Made by a program: the position numbers and the translations under genes. A DNA stretch of 64,000 nt, taken from NCBI RefSeq assembly GCF_001427145.1, contig NZ_LMGL01000001.1, positions 1,441,241 through 1,505,240 of the forward strand, in the 5' to 3' direction. Under the pieces are notes generated by a model, which had not been told where the DNA came from, did not search any database, and was given only the letters and a program-made list of their open reading frames with translations. The DNA is from Microbacterium sp. Root166. GTDB taxonomy: Bacteria; Actinomycetota; Actinomycetes; Actinomycetales; Microbacteriaceae. Positions 45,626-61,112 of this stretch are shown here, piece by piece. Every line of letters starts with the position of its first letter. Position 1 is the first letter of the stretch.

Positions 45626-46381
45626 ATGGCGGCCATCGATCTCAACGCCGATCTGGGCGAGACCATCGACGGCGTGCCGACGGCCGACGACGAGGCGATG
45701 TTCGCGGTGATCTCGAGCGCGAGCGTCGCCTGCGGCGGGCATGCGGGGGATGCCGCGGCCATGGCCGAGGCGGTGGCACGCGCCGCGCGGCACGGTGTCG
45801 CGGTCGGCGCGCACCCGTCCTACCCGGATCGGGCCGGCTTCGGTCGCGTGGCCATGAGCTTGAGCCCGGACGAGCTCGCCGAGACCGTCGCGGTGCAGCT
45901 CGGCGCCCTCGTCGCGGCCGGCGCCGACGTGCGGTACGTGAAGCCGCACGGCGCGCTCTACCACGCCGTCGCGCACGACGACGCGCAGGCCCACGCGGTC
46001 GCCCGGGCCATCGCCGATCAGTCCGACCTCCTCGGCCGCGCGCTGCCGATCCTGGGCCTGAGCGGCCGAATCGCGGCGGCCGCGGCATCCGTCGGTCTGC
46101 CCTTCGTGCGCGAGGCCTTCCTGGACCGCGGCTACACCGCTGCCGGCGGCCTCGTCCCGCGGGGCGCGGCCGGAGCGCTGCTCGACGACCCCGACGCCGT
46201 GGCGACACGCGCGATCCGGCTCGTGCGCGAGGGAGTCGTCGAGGCCGCGGACGGAGCACTCGTCGAGGTGGATGCCGCCTCCCTGTGCCTGCACGGCGAC
46301 TCGCCGTCGGCGGTGGCGATGGCCCGCGCCGTGCGGTCGGCCCTCGACGCGGACGGCATCGAGGTGCGCGCGCCGTGGTGA
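45626..46381 (+). CDS. pxpA: 5-oxoprolinase subunit A (LamB/YcsF family)
   Basis: A 251-residue LamB/YcsF protein. MAAIDLNADLGETIDG carries the NxDxGE block; ASVACGGHAGDAAAM, GAHPSYPDRAGFGR and YVKPHGALYHAV are diagnostic. With PxpB and PxpC it cleaves 5-oxo-L-proline (pyroglutamate) to glutamate using ATP. Its stop overlaps the start of the fused pxpB-pxpC gene by 4 nt (GTGA). Confidence 0.95.
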   Translation: MAAIDLNADLGETIDGVPTADDEAMFAVISSASVACGGHAGDAAAMAEAVARAARHGVAVGAHPSYPDRAGFGRVAMSLSPDELAETVAVQLGALVAAGADVRYVKPHGALYHAVAHDDAQAHAVARAIADQSDLLGRALPILGLSGRIAAAAASVGLPFVREAFLDRGYTAAGGLVPRGAAGALLDDPDAVATRAIRLVREGVVEAADGALVEVDAASLCLHGDSPSAVAMARAVRSALDADGIEVRAPW

Positions 46382-47931
46382 GCGTGCAGGTGCTCCCGGT
46401 GGGGGAGCGCGCGTTCCTGCTCGAGACCGGCTCGCTCGACGAGGTGCTCGCGCTGCTCGCGGCGCTGGAATCCGCCCGCCCGGACGGCGTCGTCGATCTC
46501 GTGCCCGCCGCGCGGACGGTCCTGGTCCGCGTCGATCCGCGTGTGCTCCCGCTCTCGGCCGCTCGTGCCTGGGCGCTCGGCGTCGCACAGGCGGCTCAGA
46601 GCGCAGCGGCGGCACCCGGCGAGACCGTCGAGCTCGAGGTCGCCTATGACGGCGCCGACCTGGCCGAGACGGCCGAGCTGCTGGGCGTGACGCCCGCCGA
46701 GCTCGTGCAGCGGCACACCGGCGCCGAGTGGACGGTCGCGTTCACGGGCTTCGCGCCGGGTTTCGGGTACCTCGTCAGCGGTGACTGGCCCTTCGACGTC
46801 CCCCGCCTGGACGCCCCGCGCACCCGGGTGCCGGCCGGGTCGGTCGCGCTCGCGGGCGAGTTCTCCGGCGCCTACCCCCGCGATACCCCCGGCGGCTGGC
46901 GGCTGATCGGGACGACCGGAGCACGGCTTTTCGATCCGGATGCCGCGTCCCCCGCGCTTCTCGCGCCGGGGACGCGCGTCCGATTCCGGGAGCTGTCCGG
47001 CGGATCGTCGCCGGTGCGCGCGAGCACAGGATCTCCTGCCGCCGTGCGCCCGCCGGACGGAGCATCGATCGAGGTCGTCGAGCCCGGCCTGCTCGCAACC
47101 CTGCAGGACCTCGGCCGCGCCGGGTCGGCCGCCCTCGGCGTAGCGACCTCGGGCGCGCTCGACCGTGCCGCCCTGCGGACGGCGAACCGCCTGCTCGGCA
47201 ACGGCGAGAACGCCGCGGCGATCGAGGTGACGATGGGCGGCTTCCGGGCCGTGGCGCGGTCCGAGCTCTGGTTCGCGGTGACCGGCGCCTGGGGTCCGAT
47301 CCGGCTCGACGGCCACGAGGTGGACCCGTTCCAAGCGCACCGCTGGCCCGCGGGCGCAGAGCTGCACGTCGACTGGTTCGCGCACGGCGCGCGCGCGTGT
47401 CTCGCGGTGCGCGGCGGCTTGGACGGGCCGCCGGCGCTCGGCTCGCGCGCGACCGACCTGCTGGCCGGGCTCGGACCGGCTCCTCTCCGGCGCGGCGACG
47501 TGATCGGCGTGCGCGACGACATCGCCGGCCCGATCCCGGTCGGGCCGCCCGCACTGTGGGGGATGCCGCACGACGACGAGCTCGTGCTCGAACTCGCGCC
47601 CGGGCCCCGCGCGGACTGGTTCGCGCCGGCCGCTCACGAGCAGCTGTTCGAGGCCGTGTGGACGGTCACGAGCGACGCCGACCGCGTGGGTGTGCGTCTG
47701 GACGGCCCCGAGCTCGCACGCATCCGCACCGGGGAGCTCGCGAGCGAGGGCATGGTGCCCGGCGCGCTGCAGGTCCCGCCGAGCGGCCGGCCGACGATCC
47801 TGCTGTCGGACGGCCCCGTGACGGGCGGCTACCCCGTCATCGCGGTGGTGACGGATGCCGCGCTCGACCTGCTCGCGCAGGCACGGCCGGGCACCGGCAT
47901 CCGCTTCCGTCACGCCCGGACGGCGAGCTGA
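46378..47931 (+). CDS. pxpBC: Fused 5-oxoprolinase subunits B and C (KipI-KipA)
   Basis: A 517-residue fusion. Residues about 1-205 are PxpB/KipI (LPVGERAFLLE; WTVAFTGFAPGFGYLVSGDW; PRTRVPAGSVALAGEFSGAY P); residues about 220-517 are PxpC/KipA (IEVVEPGLLATLQDLGRAGS; GVATSGALDRAALRTANRLL GN; RGGLDGPPALGSRATDL; SEGMVPGALQVPPSGRPTIL). Separate genes in many bacteria, joined here by a short Pro/Ser linker. GTG 46378 overlaps the pxpA stop. Its stop lies 7 bp from the convergent gene. Confidence 0.94.
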   Translation: MSVQVLPVGERAFLLETGSLDEVLALLAALESARPDGVVDLVPAARTVLVRVDPRVLPLSAARAWALGVAQAAQSAAAAPGETVELEVAYDGADLAETAELLGVTPAELVQRHTGAEWTVAFTGFAPGFGYLVSGDWPFDVPRLDAPRTRVPAGSVALAGEFSGAYPRDTPGGWRLIGTTGARLFDPDAASPALLAPGTRVRFRELSGGSSPVRASTGSPAAVRPPDGASIEVVEPGLLATLQDLGRAGSAALGVATSGALDRAALRTANRLLGNGENAAAIEVTMGGFRAVARSELWFAVTGAWGPIRLDGHEVDPFQAHRWPAGAELHVDWFAHGARACLAVRGGLDGPPALGSRATDLLAGLGPAPLRRGDVIGVRDDIAGPIPVGPPALWGMPHDDELVLELAPGPRADWFAPAAHEQLFEAVWTVTSDADRVGVRLDGPELARIRTGELASEGMVPGALQVPPSGRPTILLSDGPVTGGYPVIAVVTDAALDLLAQARPGTGIRFRHARTAS

Positions 47932-47938
47932 GCCCCGG

Positions 47939-49948
47939 CTACGGGTTGAGCTGGTGCCGGGCGGGGTACGCCTTCGGAGTGAGCGTGAGCGTGAGCGTGA
48001 TCTTCTTGCGCGCGGGCAGCTCGACCTCGATGCGGTTGGTGCTCACCGCCCTGCGGGTCGTCTTCGTGCGGACCTCCGGCGTGGCGAAGTCGATGATCTT
48101 GCCGGGGTAGTCGCCCTCGTCGATGACGGTCGCCTCGACCTCGTCGATGCGGTCCTCGCCGAATGCTCCGGCCTGCACGACGACGCTCGCGCCGCGGCGG
48201 ACGCCGAGGTTGACGAGCTCCAGCGTGACGCTGTCCGGGGTGATCTTCGACACCAGGGCCGACACCTCGGGCGGGAGGCCCGGACGCCCGGCGGCACGGT
48301 CGTAGTAGCGCACGCGGGCGTGCTGCAGGCCGCCGTTGTACAGCGCGGGCGGCGCACCGGTCGTGAGCTGCGTGAGCACCTCGGTCACCACGGGGTTGAC
48401 CCCCTGCCAGTAGTGGATGTGCGACTTCTGCGGGTCGAACGGGAAGAGGTCCATCAGGTCGAGGCGGTGGTTGACCTGACCGAGGGCCATGGTCAGCGCG
48501 CGCTCGGGGTAGTCCGGGTTGGCTCCCCACAGGTAGGACACCCACGGTGCTTCGTGGCCGGCCTCTTCCTTGTCGCGGAACTCGGCGACCACGGTGGGGT
48601 CGACGATGCCCTGTTCGAGGACCCGCTCGAGCCGCTGCGTGTCCTGGTCGTTCATCGTCCACCACCACAGCCAGGTCGGAAAGGCGTTCAGCATGGGGCC
48701 GTAGTCGAACCAGCCGTCCTGGCCGTAGCGCATCGGCACGAGCATGCCGGCCTTCTCGTCCTCGTACAGGCCGGTGGTCTTGTTGCCCATGCGGGCCATC
48801 CACGAGCCGCGCAGGCTCAGCGGCTGGTCGACGTCGGGCTCCTCCATGACCGCGTTCTCGATGACGAGGTCCAGCGGCACGCGGGTGAGGTCGAAGTACG
48901 AGTCGTCGCCGGTGACCAGCGCCGCGTTCTGGCCGGCGATGAGGGTTCCCATGCCGATGCTGGCGATGCCGTGCGGCCACGTCCACCCGTAGTGCCCGCC
49001 GTACCAGCGGCCGTCCTGCATGCCGCCGGCGACGCCGTCCAGGTCGACGTTGTCGGGAACGATGCCCGAGTTGGCGTTGGCGCGCTCCACCCAGCCGTCC
49101 ACGTACCGCGTGATCCACTCGGCGTACTTCGCGTCGCCGTCGTACAGCCACGCGTTGGCGGCGAGCGAGGTGGCCGCGAGGTTCATGGGGATGTCGCCGT
49201 TGCCCATGCGGGTCTGCATGGCCTGACCCATGCGGTCGGCCATCCCGGGCTTGCCCAGGTCGTCCCACTCGACGATCCCGGGCACGTGGTGCAGCGGCAG
49301 GCCGTACTGGGCCATGAGGGGCTGGTTCGCCGGATAGGTCTCCCATTCCGGGCCGACACCGGGACGCAGACCCATCGAGCCGTTGTGGGGTGCGCCGATG
49401 GTGTTGGTCGCTTCGTCGTAGTTGACGCTGCCCGGGAGGTAGTAGTCGGCGAGGCGGCGGGCGCGCTCGCGGAACGCCTCGTCCGACGGGTCGGCCGCGC
49501 AGATGCCGTAGAAGTAGATCAGCGCCTCGCCGTTGTGGAACCAGTCGTAGCCGCGCTCGAGATCGTCCACAACGAACCCGGCCTCGGTCATCTGCGCCGT
49601 GATTCCGCGCCAGTGGTGCTTCAGGGCCTCAAGGAGATCGTCGGCGCCGCCGAGCATGTACAGCGCCGGCCAGTTGAAGAAGGGCTCGTAGAAGTCGTCC
49701 GAGCCGTCGCGCGTGTCGGTGAACGCGCGTGAGAACCGCAGCCGTCCGTCCTCCTCGCAGAAGCGCGCCACCAGCTCGCGCCAGCCCTCGTCCATGACGT
49801 CGAACAGGCGGCGCTGAAGCACGGCCCACTCCGGAGGAGACTGCACGGGCACGGACGCGGAGAAGCGAGGAAGCGGCCTCTCATGCGTCGGCAGGGCGGG
49901 GGAGGGGCTCAGTTCATCGCTCAAGGATTTTCCAGACGTCGTTGCCAA
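47939..49948 (-). CDS. Large soluble protein of unknown function, possibly carbohydrate-active
   Basis: A 669-residue protein I cannot place. Residues about 40-500 are helical with many Trp/Tyr/Asp/Gly loops (FYEPFFNWPALYMLGGADDL; GAPHNGSMGLRPGVGPEWET; GRWYGGHYGWTWPHGIASIG; HYWQGVNPV), the look of an (alpha/alpha) barrel glycosidase or lyase. Residues about 520-669 are beta-rich (SVTLELVNLGVRRGASVVVQ; EVELPARKKITLTLTLT), like the accessory sheet domains of such enzymes. There is no signal peptide, so it would be cytosolic. The start is uncertain: TTG 49948 is the longest option; TTG 49924 is another. It lies 56 bp downstream of the STAND gene, in the same direction. Confidence 0.6.
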   Translation of the reverse strand: MATTSGKSLSDELSPSPALPTHERPLPRFSASVPVQSPPEWAVLQRRLFDVMDEGWRELVARFCEEDGRLRFSRAFTDTRDGSDDFYEPFFNWPALYMLGGADDLLEALKHHWRGITAQMTEAGFVVDDLERGYDWFHNGEALIYFYGICAADPSDEAFRERARRLADYYLPGSVNYDEATNTIGAPHNGSMGLRPGVGPEWETYPANQPLMAQYGLPLHHVPGIVEWDDLGKPGMADRMGQAMQTRMGNGDIPMNLAATSLAANAWLYDGDAKYAEWITRYVDGWVERANANSGIVPDNVDLDGVAGGMQDGRWYGGHYGWTWPHGIASIGMGTLIAGQNAALVTGDDSYFDLTRVPLDLVIENAVMEEPDVDQPLSLRGSWMARMGNKTTGLYEDEKAGMLVPMRYGQDGWFDYGPMLNAFPTWLWWWTMNDQDTQRLERVLEQGIVDPTVVAEFRDKEEAGHEAPWVSYLWGANPDYPERALTMALGQVNHRLDLMDLFPFDPQKSHIHYWQGVNPVVTEVLTQLTTGAPPALYNGGLQHARVRYYDRAAGRPGLPPEVSALVSKITPDSVTLELVNLGVRRGASVVVQAGAFGEDRIDEVEATVIDEGDYPGKIIDFATPEVRTKTTRRAVSTNRIEVELPARKKITLTLTLTPKAYPARHQLNP

Positions 49949-49962
49949 GGAGACGGCTATAG

Positions 49963-49974
49963 ATTATCGATAAT
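49963..49974. promoter_or_regulatory. Palindrome ATTATCGATAAT
   Basis: A perfect A/T-rich 12-bp palindrome in a very GC-rich sequence, 14 bp upstream of the TTG start of the unknown 669-residue protein. It probably is the operator of a dimeric regulator and overlaps a candidate promoter. Confidence 0.6.
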
Positions 49975-50004: not shown

Positions 50005-52638
50005 TCACCAGTGTGCCAGCGCCGCCTCGACCCCCGCATGCTCCGTTTCGGGGAGCGCCAGGCGCACCGCCTCGGGCACGCTCAGCTCGGCCCCGGCGGC
50101 CTCGCCGGCCGCGACGACCTCGGGATCCCGGCCGCGCAGGATGTCGAGGTACGGGGTGTGCACCGTGAACGCCTCGACGTCGAAGATGCCGATGCGACGG
50201 CGGATCACGCCGGCGGCCACCGCGAGAGCGGACGCGCGCCACGCGTCGCCCTTCGCCGCAGCGACCGCGCACACCCCCTCGAGCCCGTACGCGACGCCCT
50301 CCTCGTAGTGCAGCTCCACCGAGAGGAGCAGGGTCTGGAGGAACTCGTCCTCGGCGAGATCGATGTGTCCGAGCTGGAAGTTCAGTCTCGAACGGAGGTT
50401 GCCGGCGACCGACGTGGTGAACAGGTCGCCGCCGGCCGAGGCGACCTCGGTGGCGCGGTCGAAGTGCGCGAGCGCCTCCTCGATCGAGCCGCGCACCCAG
50501 GCCAGTCGGCCGAGCGACACCTCCGTGATGGCCTCCGCCCAGCCGTTGCCGAGCGCGCGCAGCCGGGCCACCGCACGGCGCAGCTCGCGTTCGGCCTTGG
50601 CGACATCGGGGTCGACGAGCTGCACGCGCGCCGTCGCCCGCGCGGCGAGCGCCATGGCCGCGGCATCCTCGTCCCCGCTCTCGGTGAACAGCCGCACGCA
50701 CTCTCCCAGCCCGGCCACCACCTGCGGGCTCGGCCGCTGCCACATCTCGCCCCACAGGGCGAGGAACCACGCGACGGCCCGCGTGTGCGGGGTGATCGGC
50801 TGCTCGTGCTGCTTCTCGAGGAGCTCCAGCATCCACAGGCGCACCTCGGCGAAGAATCCCGAGATCCACCAGTAGATGAGCAGGCTCCAGGCGAAGTCGC
50901 CGGCGTCGTCGAGGCGGTCCGTGTAGACGAGGTGGCGGACGGCCGCGCGAAGATTGGGCAGCTCCAGTCCGAGCTGCACGGCCGCCTGCGCCTGCCCATC
51001 GCCTCGCAGGCCGGGGGCCACCCGCCGCACGAATTCGACGTAGTAGTCCGCGTGCGCCGCTCGCACGCGGTCGGCGTCGCCTCGCGCCTTGAGGCGCCCC
51101 AGCGAGTACTCGCGCACGATCGCGAGCAGCGAGAACACCGCGCGCCCGCCGATCTCGGTCTGCGTGACGAGCGAGCTGTCGACGAGGGCCGCCAGGGCGT
51201 CGAGCTCCTGGCCTTCCCACGACCGCCCTGGAGCCAGCGCCTCGACGGCCTCGAGGGTGAAGCGCGTCGCGAAGACTCCCAGATCCTCCAGGAGATCCCG
51301 CTGCGGTTCCGGCAGCAGGCCCACGCTCCAGTCGATGGTGGCCCTCATGGTCCGGTGACGCTCCGGCAGGTCGCGCACCGCAGCCGTCAGCAGGGGGAGG
51401 CTCTGCTCGAGTCGCTGCGCGATCCCGCTGGGCGTCAGGATGCGGGTCTTCGCCGCAGCGAGTTCGATCGCCAGGGGCAGGCCCTCGAGGGCCCGGCAGA
51501 TCACCGCCAGGTCGGCGGCGTTGTCCGGGGTCACGTCGAAGCCGGGCTTGACGGCCTGCGCCCGGTCGACGAAGAGGGCGACCGCGGCCGAGCGGGTCGA
51601 CGGATCCAGACTCGCCGACGCGCCCTGCGGCGGAGTCGTCAGCGTCGGCACCTCGTACACGCGCTCGCCGCGGATGCGCAGGACGATCCGGCTCGTGACC
51701 AGGAACGTCGCGGTCGGGGCGACCGAGTAGAGCCGGACGAGCACCGGAGCGGCCTCGACGATCTGCTCGAAGTTGTCGAGCACTACGAGCACCTTGCGGT
51801 CGGCCAGCGCGTGCGAGATGCGCTCCTCGAGCGCCGCCTCGCCGTTGTCGCGGATGCCCAGGTGATAGGCGATGGTCGGCAGCAGCAGGCCGGGCTCGAG
51901 GACGCCCTCCAGCAGCACGAAGTACGTGCCGTCGGGGAAGAGGTCCTCGGATGCCAGTGCCGTCTCGATCGCCAGCCGGCTCTTGCCGATGCCGCCGGGA
52001 CCGATGAGGCTCACCACTCGGTCCGTCCCGCGGGCGAGCACGTCCCGCACCGCCGCGATGTCGGCGTCCCTGCCGATGGTGGCGGTGTAGGGCGCCGGAA
52101 TGCGTGCGATGAGGGATGCCGCGGCCCCGTCGCCGTCGGAGTCGGTGACCATGCGGGACTCGTCGAAGCGCTCGGCCAGGAGCATCGCGAGATCGCCCGC
52201 GACCTGATCCTCGAGCTCCTCCGCGGAGCGGAAGTGCAGATAGGCCGCCGTGTCGTCTGCCTGGATGCGCTCGATCAGCTCGGTGAGGCGCTCGTCCCGC
52301 GTCGCCGACTCCTTGATGTAGATGAGCTTCGGCATCCCCTTCGGTGCGAGGTTGTACTCGTCCTCCAGTCCCGAGACGTCCTCGTCGGGCGCCACCCAGC
52401 CGTAGCTCGCGCCGTAGATGCCGATGAACACGTCGCTCTGCGACAAGTAGGAGCGATACAGCTCGCGCGGGGGATGGGGGCGCGCACCCAGTTCGAACAT
52501 GACGGGCGCGAGCCGCATCCGCTCCACGGCGCCACGCACCGCCCGACGCTCGTCGGCGAGCTCGCGCAGAGTCGAGCTCACGAACACCCGGATCCGCTGG
52601 TCGGGAGTGCGGATCACGGGGTGTGTGACCCCAGTCAT
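50005..52638 (-). CDS. DUF4062-STAND NTPase with helical repeats
   Basis: An 877-residue signal-type ATPase. Residues about 14-110 are a DUF4062-type domain (RIRVFVSSTLRELADERRAV; SQSDVFIGIYGASYGW). Residues about 185-440 are an NB-ARC-like AAA core: Walker A GPGGIGKS (213-220), Walker B KVLVVLDNFEQ, LVTSR (313-317) and GLPLAIELAAAK (386-397). A winged helix (LEDLGVFATRFTLEAVEALA) and then about 350 residues of TPR-like helices follow. This is the plan of STAND sensors: the repeats sense, the NTPase switches, the N-terminal domain signals. ATG 52638 is chosen over GTG 52644 because CATGAT sits six bases before it. No SARP DNA-binding domain is present. Confidence 0.88.
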   Translation of the reverse strand: MTGVTHPVIRTPDQRIRVFVSSTLRELADERRAVRGAVERMRLAPVMFELGARPHPPRELYRSYLSQSDVFIGIYGASYGWVAPDEDVSGLEDEYNLAPKGMPKLIYIKESATRDERLTELIERIQADDTAAYLHFRSAEELEDQVAGDLAMLLAERFDESRMVTDSDGDGAAASLIARIPAPYTATIGRDADIAAVRDVLARGTDRVVSLIGPGGIGKSRLAIETALASEDLFPDGTYFVLLEGVLEPGLLLPTIAYHLGIRDNGEAALEERISHALADRKVLVVLDNFEQIVEAAPVLVRLYSVAPTATFLVTSRIVLRIRGERVYEVPTLTTPPQGASASLDPSTRSAAVALFVDRAQAVKPGFDVTPDNAADLAVICRALEGLPLAIELAAAKTRILTPSGIAQRLEQSLPLLTAAVRDLPERHRTMRATIDWSVGLLPEPQRDLLEDLGVFATRFTLEAVEALAPGRSWEGQELDALAALVDSSLVTQTEIGGRAVFSLLAIVREYSLGRLKARGDADRVRAAHADYYVEFVRRVAPGLRGDGQAQAAVQLGLELPNLRAAVRHLVYTDRLDDAGDFAWSLLIYWWISGFFAEVRLWMLELLEKQHEQPITPHTRAVAWFLALWGEMWQRPSPQVVAGLGECVRLFTESGDEDAAAMALAARATARVQLVDPDVAKAERELRRAVARLRALGNGWAEAITEVSLGRLAWVRGSIEEALAHFDRATEVASAGGDLFTTSVAGNLRSRLNFQLGHIDLAEDEFLQTLLLSVELHYEEGVAYGLEGVCAVAAAKGDAWRASALAVAAGVIRRRIGIFDVEAFTVHTPYLDILRGRDPEVVAAGEAAGAELSVPEAVRLALPETEHAGVEAALAHW

Positions 52639-52756
52639 GTGCACATCATGGCGCAGCAGGCGGTTGTCGCGCCATCAAGACAGGCGGAAATCCGCGGCTG
52701 GATGCCCCTCCGCTCGCGGTTATACCGCAGCATCCGAAAGTCGTCAAGGATGCCGC

Positions 52757-52785
52757 TGGACATGGCGCGTCATGACACGTATAGT
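52757..52785 (+). promoter_or_regulatory. Main promoter of rpoB-rpoC
   Basis: TGGACA (52757-52762), a 17-bp spacer and TATAGT (52780-52785) are the best sigma-70-type promoter in the window. It leaves a leader of about 160 nt before the rpoB start at 52956. The rest of this 317-bp gap (52639-52955) holds no gene; leader control of RNA polymerase synthesis is possible. Confidence 0.75.
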
Positions 52786-52955: not shown

Positions 52956-56447
<3,492 letters not shown>

Positions 56448-60479: not shown

Positions 60480-61112
60480 TCAGACCTGAGTGCCGCCCAC
60501 CGGTCCGCCGGCGGCAGCCCCACGCTGTTCCCCCGCGCCGACGTTCTCCTTCACACGATCGGCAGTCGACTGCGCCTCTTCCTTGACCGTCTCTGCGGAG
60601 TCGACCGCCGCCTGCTTGACCTGGTCCACGGCGTCCTTCGCCGGCTGCTTGAGGCTGCCCGCCACCTCCCGCGCCGTCTCGCCCGCCTTGTCGACGAGCG
60701 GCTGCGCCTGATCCTTCAGCTGGGATGCCATCCTGCGTTCGCGGTCGCTGGCGGGGATCAGCATGGCGGCTACGAAGGCGAGGCCTGCGGCGACCGCACC
60801 CACCACGAGCGGTGCGCCCTGCGTGGTCTGCTTCGCCTTGTGCGGCAGGTCGGCGACCACCTCGCCCGCCGACGAGACGGCGTCCGAGACGGCGTGCCCG
60901 GCGGTGGAGGCCGCCCCGGATGCCGAGTGCCCGATGTCGTCGGCCTTGCCCATGACACGCTCCCTTACGTCGTCGATCCGCTGGCGCAGTCGGGTCTTCT
61001 GGCGGTCGACGATCTTGACGGGCGTCACCTTGTCGGCGAGCGCGTCGACGTCCTGGCCGAGCTCTGCGCGGGTCACCTCGATGTCTGCGCGAATCTCATC
61101 CGGAGTGCTCAT
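60480..61112 (-). CDS. DUF3618-domain membrane-associated protein
   Basis: A 210-residue protein. TPDEIRADIEVTRAELGQDV DALADKV is the DUF3618 signature; one membrane helix (APLVVGAVAAGLAFVAAMLI) lies near residues 100-120; both flanks are amphipathic Ala/Lys/Glu helices resembling apolipoprotein- or LEA-type repeats (AKDAVDQVKQAAVDSAETVK). ATG 61112 overlaps the upstream gene stop (ATGA), with AGGAGA five bases before it. Last gene of a three-gene coupled set, probably a membrane or osmotic-stress module. Confidence 0.88.
   Translation of the reverse strand: MSTPDEIRADIEVTRAELGQDVDALADKVTPVKIVDRQKTRLRQRIDDVRERVMGKADDIGHSASGAASTAGHAVSDAVSSAGEVVADLPHKAKQTTQGAPLVVGAVAAGLAFVAAMLIPASDRERRMASQLKDQAQPLVDKAGETAREVAGSLKQPAKDAVDQVKQAAVDSAETVKEEAQSTADRVKENVGAGEQRGAAAGGPVGGTQV

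What the first reader, a model, noticed from the sequence alone, without database searches (positions are those of the whole stretch)
50005..52638. DUF4062-STAND ATPase as a candidate intracellular sensor or defence protein
The order DUF4062, NB-ARC-like NTPase, winged helix, TPR-like repeats is that of STAND switches, several of which sense phage proteins in bacteria. It stands alone beside rpoB rather than in a defence island, and the adjoining downstream gene encodes a 669-residue protein of unknown fold. The pair may be a stable, core version of such a system.
Basis: partly seen in the sequence, partly recalled or inferred. Interest (0 to 1): 0.6.

Follow-up and report, generated by a model that had tools for sequence, protein, structure and literature searches.

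The report
NLR-like cell-death switch beside rpoB
A gene next to the RNA polymerase gene of a Microbacterium-type bacterium most likely encodes a protein built like animal and plant immune receptors, which would sense an invader and make the cell destroy its own NAD+; in sister species the same spot holds tandem copies and caspase-type proteases, so the spot looks like a small immune locus, although its effect on phage is untested.

Summary
50005-52644 (minus strand) encodes an 879-aa protein: DUF4062, an NB-ARC/AP-ATPase STAND core with winged helix, then TPRs. Its model matches Apaf-1 (Z 25.4). A 2026 preprint reports that DUF4062 is a TIR-like NADase (bacterial Swarozyc, human TEP1). The window's E96 aligns with Swarozyc's catalytic Glu; one TEP1 active-site Arg is kept (R27), another is Ser (S80). 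I read it as an NLR-type abortive-infection switch acting by NAD+ depletion. Function is inferred.

The pair idea fails. The 669-residue gene sits beside the STAND gene in 1 of 8 close genomes and in 0 of 74 related loci. Its homologues lie in a sugar-uptake-type operon with a shared operator-like motif.

'Core' fails, but 'positionally stable' holds. In a sample of 247 genus genomes, 55 carry 1-4 copies within 15 kb of rpoB; distances track rpoB (Mantel r 0.81). Other mapped genomes have an empty gap, a remnant or other genes. 'Not a defence island' is true of this window, but in other species the gap also holds CHAT and caspase genes (8 of 37 named slots; 15 of 17 full-length caspase homologues in the sample). 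New variant of a known kind.

The parts
50005..52644 (-). DUF4062-STAND-TPR gene, 879 aa from GTG (877 from ATG 52638)
52165..52614 (-). DUF4062 / TIR-like domain (residues about 11-160)
   Evidence: Pfam 8.8e-21 over residues 19-100; profile match to solved KpSwz DUF4062, 5.5e-05
52357..52359 (-). codon of E96, aligned with the position of KpSwz catalytic E97 (Ala in the solved construct)
   Evidence: alignment; E96 in 13 of 13 sequences found without a pattern
51055..52104 (-). NB-ARC/AP-ATPase core and winged helix (residues 181-530)
51976..52002 (-). Walker A GPGGIGKSR (residues 215-223)
   Evidence: G215, G217, G218, G220 and K221 in 102 of 102 copies
51766..51789 (-). Walker B region, ending LDNFE (residues 286-293)
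   Evidence: D290 and E293 in 102 of 102 copies
50008..51054 (-). TPR-like sensor half (residues 531-879)
   Evidence: its last part evolves fastest of the domains
52956..56447 (+). rpoB, divergent neighbour that marks one side of the slot
52757..52785 (+). sigma-70-like promoter match pointing to rpoB in the shared intergenic region
   Evidence: 10 of 12 matches; consensus scan only
46375..47931 (+). 5-oxoprolinase-like (pxpB/C) gene, other side of the slot; gene name recalled, no family search run on it beyond PADLOC
47939..49948 (-). 669-aa gene: not a partner; lone member of a family otherwise found in a sugar-uptake-type operon
49962..49973 (.). GATTATCGATAA, operator-like motif before the 669-aa gene, shared (GATTATCGATTA) with the operons of its homologues; once in the whole genome

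Best explanation
The gene encodes a bacterial NLR-type abortive-infection switch. In the resting state the STAND core holds ADP and the TPR superhelix locks it. An invader-derived ligand binds the TPR half, ADP is exchanged for ATP, and the protein oligomerises through its NB-ARC and winged-helix core. Oligomerisation brings DUF4062/TIR-like domains together, and E96 cleaves NAD+ so that the infected cell dies or stops growing. Shown here by comparison: domain order, Walker motifs, the Apaf-1-like model, alignment of E96 with the proven KpSwz Glu, patchy occupancy and tandem turnover at one chromosomal gap, and CHAT/caspase genes in that gap in other species. Inferred: ligand binding, nucleotide exchange, oligomerisation, NADase activity, cell death, and that phage is the trigger.
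For: DUF4062 above Pfam cut-off. Profile match to solved KpSwz (5.5e-05) and, weakly, TEP1 (0.013), with E96 facing the mutated E97 position. DUF4062 reported as a TIR-like NADase in antiphage defence and in TEP1 (PMC13174449). Walker K221 and D290/E293 in 102 of 102 copies. Apaf-1 Z 25.4 over 415 residues, plus plant NLR NB-ARC and a STAND-TPR protein. Slot turnover: of 33 genus genomes mapped, 8 hold the gene, 1 a remnant with a stop, 8 an empty gap, 2 a lipoprotein-like gene, and 14 have another gene order. 92 copies near rpoB in 55 of 247 genomes, 1-4 each. CHAT + caspase beside the STAND genes in 8 of 37 named slots. Full-length caspase homologue in 14 of 55 genomes with STAND near rpoB against 3 of 192 others (Fisher 7e-8; relatedness not corrected; three further genomes with partial matches left out).
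Against: No activity or phage data. Of two TEP1 active-site Arg checked by alignment, R908 is kept (R27) but R976 is Ser (S80) here and in 55 of 58 copies at rpoB-bearing loci, window included. NPHP3, NWD1 and NWD2, which have DUF4062 next to NACHT, were inactive in vitro (PMC13174449). PADLOC has no model for it. Among 10 neighbours given to PADLOC (39.5-63.1 kb, not rpoB/rpoC) I see no defence gene: the hits are of an ABC-transporter ATPase (mad3 2.9e-57, mad8 and others, which I take as ATPase cross-matches) and a weak ZorA match of 60483-61112. The sensor half is not hypervariable (dN/dS 0.24-0.37), and the gene follows rpoB distances, unlike many mobile defence systems. The window's genome lacks a homologue of the slot caspase.
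Confidence: 0.55

Rival explanations
1. A cell-death or stress switch of the same build whose trigger is not phage (plasmids, other invading DNA, metabolic stress or kin recognition).
For: No relative found in the viral-contig scan or, for the DUF4062 part, in the phage collection (these bear on carriage, not on the trigger). rpoB-tracking distances at a fixed place and a sensor half under purifying selection.
Against: Tandem gain, loss and remnants and the reported phage-portal trigger of a DUF4062 protein (PMC13174449).
Confidence: 0.17
2. The DUF4062 domain is a catalytically weak or dead adaptor, and the STAND acts through partners (CHAT and caspase where present, unknown elsewhere), as CARD does in Apaf-1.
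For: S80 in place of the TEP1 R976 equivalent; NPHP3/NWD1/NWD2 inactive in vitro (PMC13174449); CHAT/caspase genes in 8 of 37 named slots.
Against: E96 kept in 102 of 102 copies (partly by construction, see report) and lowest dN/dS in this domain (0.185). The window's own genome lacks a homologue of the slot caspase.
Confidence: 0.15
3. A transcriptional or metabolic regulator of the MalT/AfsR kind.
For: AfsR matches profile positions 169-772 (3.4e-14), maltose-system chain 8bob_C Z 22.2, sub-cut-off NCBIfam hits to HaaT and AfsR.
Against: No DNA-binding domain among Pfam hits up to E 1; N-terminal DUF4062; patchy presence (55 of 247 near rpoB).
Confidence: 0.1
4. A two-gene system of the STAND protein and the 669-aa protein.
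For: Same strand, 56 bp apart in this window.
Against: Adjacent in 1 of 8 close genomes and 0 of 74 loci. Homologues lie in a transport/catabolic operon in 5 of 5 genomes. Related operator-like motif before the gene or its operon in 6 of 6.
Confidence: 0.03

Closest known systems
Swarozyc (KpSwz, DUF4062 + winged AUX domain), PMC13174449
   Same: DUF4062 TIR-like domain with the aligned catalytic Glu.
   Different: KpSwz is described as DUF4062 plus an HTH/winged AUX domain that senses phage portal, and lies in a defence island. The window protein has STAND and TPR instead, S80 where KpSwz and TEP1 have Arg, and sits beside rpoB.
Human TEP1, NWD1/2 and NPHP3 (DUF4062 next to NACHT), PMC13174449
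   Same: DUF4062 directly before a STAND ATPase; repeat domain after it (TPR in NPHP3 is recalled).
   Different: NB-ARC/AP-ATPase type core here rather than NACHT; bacterial; no TROVE, WD40 or vault.
Apaf-1 / plant NLRs (NRC, RPP1)
   Same: NB-ARC-winged-helix fold, Z 23-25 for Apaf-1, NRC2 and NRC1; effector domain N-terminal, repeats C-terminal; in some species caspase genes next door.
   Different: TIR-like DUF4062 effector, TPR sensor; no shown resistosome.
TIR-AP-ATPase-TPR effectors of ternary conflict systems (PMC7159879, passages seen)
   Same: N-terminal TIR, AP-ATPase, C-terminal TPRs.
   Different: DUF4062 instead of a classic TIR. Whether vWA-MoxR-VMAP partners are nearby was not searched for specifically.
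AfsR / MalT STAND regulators
   Same: AfsR is the best sequence match of the STAND-TPR part among PDB chains.
   Different: No DNA-binding domain detected.

Membership tests
DUF4062 TIR-like NADases | DUF4062 domain | tested here: met
   PF13271 74.3 bits against cut-off 24.7
DUF4062 TIR-like NADases | catalytic Glu (KpSwz E97, TEP1 E1008) | tested here: met
   E96 aligned with the Ala of the E97A construct (that this Ala is residue 97 is my numbering inference); the TEP1 alignment stops before E1008
DUF4062 TIR-like NADases | active-site Arg of TEP1 (R908, R976; Ala lowers activity) | tested here: inconclusive
   R908 position is R27; R976 position is S80. Numbering of the solved chain is my inference, consistent for three Arg
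DUF4062 TIR-like NADases | NAD+ hydrolysis | not testable with these tools
   needs protein
Swarozyc | DUF4062 followed by the HTH/winged AUX domain | tested here: not met
   879 aa with STAND and TPR; the solved KpSwz chain is 326 aa
Swarozyc | activation by phage portal | not testable with these tools
   needs phage
STAND / AP-ATPase switches | Walker A and B, winged helix, NB-ARC fold | tested here: met
STAND / AP-ATPase switches | ligand-driven oligomerisation | not testable with these tools
   needs protein
Known defence systems in PADLOC | match to a system model | tested here: inconclusive
   0 families at E up to 1; the library is of 2023
AfsR/MalT regulators | DNA-binding domain | tested here: not met
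   no HTH family among Pfam hits up to E 1; the model continues from the core into helical repeats to its end
STAND + 669-aa two-gene system | conserved adjacency | tested here: not met
   1 of 8 genomes, 0 of 74 loci

The most novel reading that the evidence does not exclude
The pxpBC-rpoB gap of Microbacterium is a genus-specific, vertically kept 'NLR cluster'. Paralogous DUF4062-STAND receptors, in three lines apparently older than the genus, are gained, lost and fused there, and in some species they are wired to a CHAT protease and a caspase to make a bacterial apoptosome, with NAD+ depletion as the simpler arm. The window species would keep only the minimal, NADase-only form. The place beside rpoB may be no accident if the receptors guard or report on RNA polymerase.
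Probability: 0.2. Interest if true: 0.8.

Novelty: new variant of a known kind. Interest (0 to 1): 0.55.

Why it matters
The DUF4062 preprint tested bacterial proteins with an AUX domain and only speculates how a STAND ATPase drives the domain in TEP1. These bacterial proteins put DUF4062 directly on an Apaf-1-like core with a TPR sensor, and so offer a tractable model for that open question. Their sister loci place the same receptor beside caspase and CHAT genes.

Tried and rejected
Pairing with the 669-aa gene: rejected. Its fold: AF2 on the single sequence failed (pLDDT 34.5), and a profile of six sequences (the window's and five homologues) found no solved relative up to E 5, so its enzyme class stays unknown; sugar catabolism rests on operon context only.

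Mobile element: 282 plasmid records match, none covering 80% of the query, and the 12 rows listed all start at residue 171 or later, after DUF4062. No phage match of the DUF4062 part at 1e-5; no relative in the viral-contig scan. A PHROG of unknown function matches residues 15-114 at 1.6e-8, so phages do carry something distantly like DUF4062. Hypervariable sensor: not seen.

The fold search lists show no TIR structure for the DUF4062 part. The lists are filled by the STAND and TPR parts, so this is no evidence either way; the link to TIR rests on the profile match and the preprint. E96 and E94 invariance in the named loci is partly by construction, because one of the two search patterns was [IV]SGLEDEY; the 13 sequences were found without it. 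One search kept the best 80 (74 distinct loci) of 304 relatives; the rest were not examined. 4 of the 74 loci gave no near full-length copy (L105, L133, L147, L161). The match list was cut at its weak end. In one search three genomes with partial caspase matches (G146, G190, G207) were left out. The near-palindrome upstream of rpoB looked conserved, but it is exact in only 12 of 33 mapped genomes, so I make nothing of it.

'Swarozyc' as a search word found nothing, presumably because the paper prints an accented letter. No held paper joins Microbacterium, defense systems, phage and NLR. DUF4062 occurs in 9 held papers, of which I opened one; its main text does not contain TPR, tandem or Actinom, and its supplements were not read. 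I therefore do not claim that bacterial DUF4062-STAND proteins are unreported.

Full report
OBSERVATION. Pfam gives DUF4062 at 8.8e-21 (residues 19-100) and, below cut-off, AAA_16, AAA_22, NB-ARC and TPR_12. NCBIfam gives sub-cut-off matches to HaaT and AfsR. PADLOC gives none. An AF2 model with 38 sequences reaches mean pLDDT 83.4 and pTM 0.73. It matches Apaf-1 (Z 25.4, rmsd 4.4, 415 residues), resting NRC2 (23.5), the NRC1 NB-ARC (23.2), the STAND-TPR protein 6mfv (23.1) and 8bob_C of the maltose system (22.2). It is the only DUF4062 match of the genome.

THE EFFECTOR DOMAIN. A 2026 preprint (PMC13174449; main text before the references, legends and passages read; supplements not read) reports that DUF4062 is a TIR-like NADase. 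KpSwz, named Swarozyc, protects E. coli from phage, needs E97 and its AUX domain, and is triggered by phage portal. Human TEP1 is active through E1008, while NWD1, NWD2 and NPHP3 were not active in vitro. A profile of 20 DUF4062 domains finds KpSwz (10wc, 5.5e-05) and TEP1 (11gz, 0.013) among PDB chains. The window's SGLEDEYNLA is aligned with SFTEKAFDYA of the KpSwz construct, so that E96 faces the Ala, which should be the mutated E97 (this numbering is my inference from the E97A construct named in the paper). In the same way TEP1 R908 falls on R27 and R976 on S80. Ala at either position lowered TEP1 activity in the paper. At S80, 55 of 58 copies at rpoB-bearing loci have Ser; in the other 44 copies Arg is commonest (19; Ser 14). 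This counts against an unchanged active site.

CONSERVATION. E96, K221, D290 and E293 are kept in 102 of 102 near full-length copies from 71 sources (70 of 74 named loci plus the window). Because one search pattern contained the E96 motif, the unbiased figure is 13 of 13 in the alignment made without it. Among 36 slot copies at least 68% identical to the window protein, median dN/dS is 0.185 in DUF4062, 0.25 in NB-ARC and in ARC/winged helix, 0.24 and 0.37 in the two TPR parts, and 0.61 in the 20-residue linker. Protein distance follows rpoB distance (Mantel r 0.814, 34 copies, 0 of 2000 permutations as high).

THE SLOT. I mapped the region upstream of rpoB in 33 of 35 same-genus genomes; the other two had only partial rpoB matches. 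8 hold the gene between rpoB and the pxp or ABC-transporter genes, 1 holds a remnant with a stop, 8 have pxpBC within 400 bp of rpoB and nothing between, 2 have a lipoprotein-like gene, and 14 have another gene order. In a sample of 247 genus genomes, 61 had STAND-type DUF4062 matches (132 in all, 56% domain identity or more). 55 genomes had 92 of them within 15 kb of rpoB (8.8 kb at most), 1-4 each; 40 copies lie elsewhere, and 6 genomes have only such copies, one of them (G232) on a contig end. Of 74 named loci (from the best 80 of 304 relatives), 40 are Microbacterium and 37 of these carry rpoB in the fetched stretch. The other three are a 3.5-kb contig and two extra copies of strain cf046. 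All 59 copies at those 37 slots point away from rpoB; 20 of 22 gaps between neighbours are under 200 bp (strand of rpoB). Agrococcus, Agromyces, Leifsonia and others have relatives at other places. In Agrococcus that place is also constant: 7 of 9 loci share four flanking genes, and the other two are on short contigs. The tree (FastTree) shows three lines of slot copies, two of which also hold Agrococcus copies, so the duplication seems older than the genus unless copies moved between genera. In strain Root180 two tandem copies are fused in one 1750-aa frame, and in M. yannicii PS01 the middle copy is frameshifted.

CHAT AND CASPASE. In 8 of 37 named slots the STAND genes are followed, same direction, by a CHAT protein and a caspase-domain protein. 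Pfam was run on 3 of the 8 (L094, L100, L101: CHAT 1e-20 to 3e-22, caspase 6e-22 to 8e-26); the other five were identified by similarity to L101. The caspase protein has an N-terminal half that looks hydrolase-like to me by eye. In the 247-genome sample 17 genomes carry a full-length homologue of this caspase (43-100% identity; one, G032, with a stop inside); three more with partial matches were left out. 15 of the 17 have it near rpoB, and 13 of those 15 share the slot with a STAND gene. 14 of 55 genomes with STAND near rpoB have it against 3 of 192 others (Fisher 7e-8, not corrected for relatedness). CHAT is beside it in 5 of 5 such slots fetched; two of these, G229 and G244, have CHAT and caspase without STAND. 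The window's genome has no homologue of this caspase. So the gap is a small conflict-gene site in the genus, and the window shows a simple form of it.

THE 669-AA GENE. It is in the slot only in the window's genome: 1 of 33 mapped genomes and 0 of 74 loci. Homologues (50-54% identity) are in 5 of the 57 other genomes searched. In all 5 they follow a solute-binding protein and two probable permeases and precede an RraA-like gene and an aldo-keto reductase, with an amidohydrolase next in 4 of 5 (Pfam on one example of each of five of these genes). GATTATCGAT stands before the window gene and just upstream of the first gene of all 5 operons. GATTATCGATWA occurs once in the window's 3.46-Mb genome. 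It is best read as a displaced catabolic gene with its own control, not a STAND partner.

MECHANISM AND VERDICT. The anatomy is that of an NLR: N-terminal killing domain, NB-ARC switch, C-terminal repeat sensor. The best reading is abortive infection by NAD+ depletion upon sensing an invader. Domain identity, catalytic Glu and fold are shown by comparison. Activity, oligomerisation, trigger and phage protection are inferred. It is not Swarozyc in the strict sense, because the AUX architecture is absent. It is a new variant of the DUF4062/TIR-STAND kind. Literature search was limited (passages in 85 and 91), so absence from print is not claimed.

Noticed in passing
L101:12797-17215 and equivalents in L094, L100, L103, L106, L128, L129, L132: CHAT-protease and caspase genes between the STAND array and pxpBC in 8 named Microbacterium slots.
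   Followed up: partly
L143, L144, L146, L149, L150, L153, L154, L156, L157, L046, L048: A conserved 250-300-aa gene, by eye a multi-pass membrane protein (no Pfam match for the L157 one), directly follows the STAND genes of the more distant clade in 11 loci.
   Followed up: partly
L091:7376-12631 (G012): Two tandem DUF4062-STAND copies fused in one open frame of 1750 aa.
   Followed up: partly
L118:12878-15385 and L166:10869-13378: A LuxR-type AAA/TPR regulator gene shares the slot in these two genomes (in two pieces in L166).
   Followed up: no
genus survey, e.g. G107, G248, G269: Apparently stand-alone DUF4062 proteins (open frames of about 350-400 codons, 35-41% identity), size like KpSwz, in several genus genomes.
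   Followed up: no
window 52716-52728: GCGGTTATACCGC, a near-palindrome between the STAND gene and rpoB; exact within 400 bp upstream of rpoB in 12 of 33 mapped genus genomes, with or without a STAND gene.
   Followed up: partly
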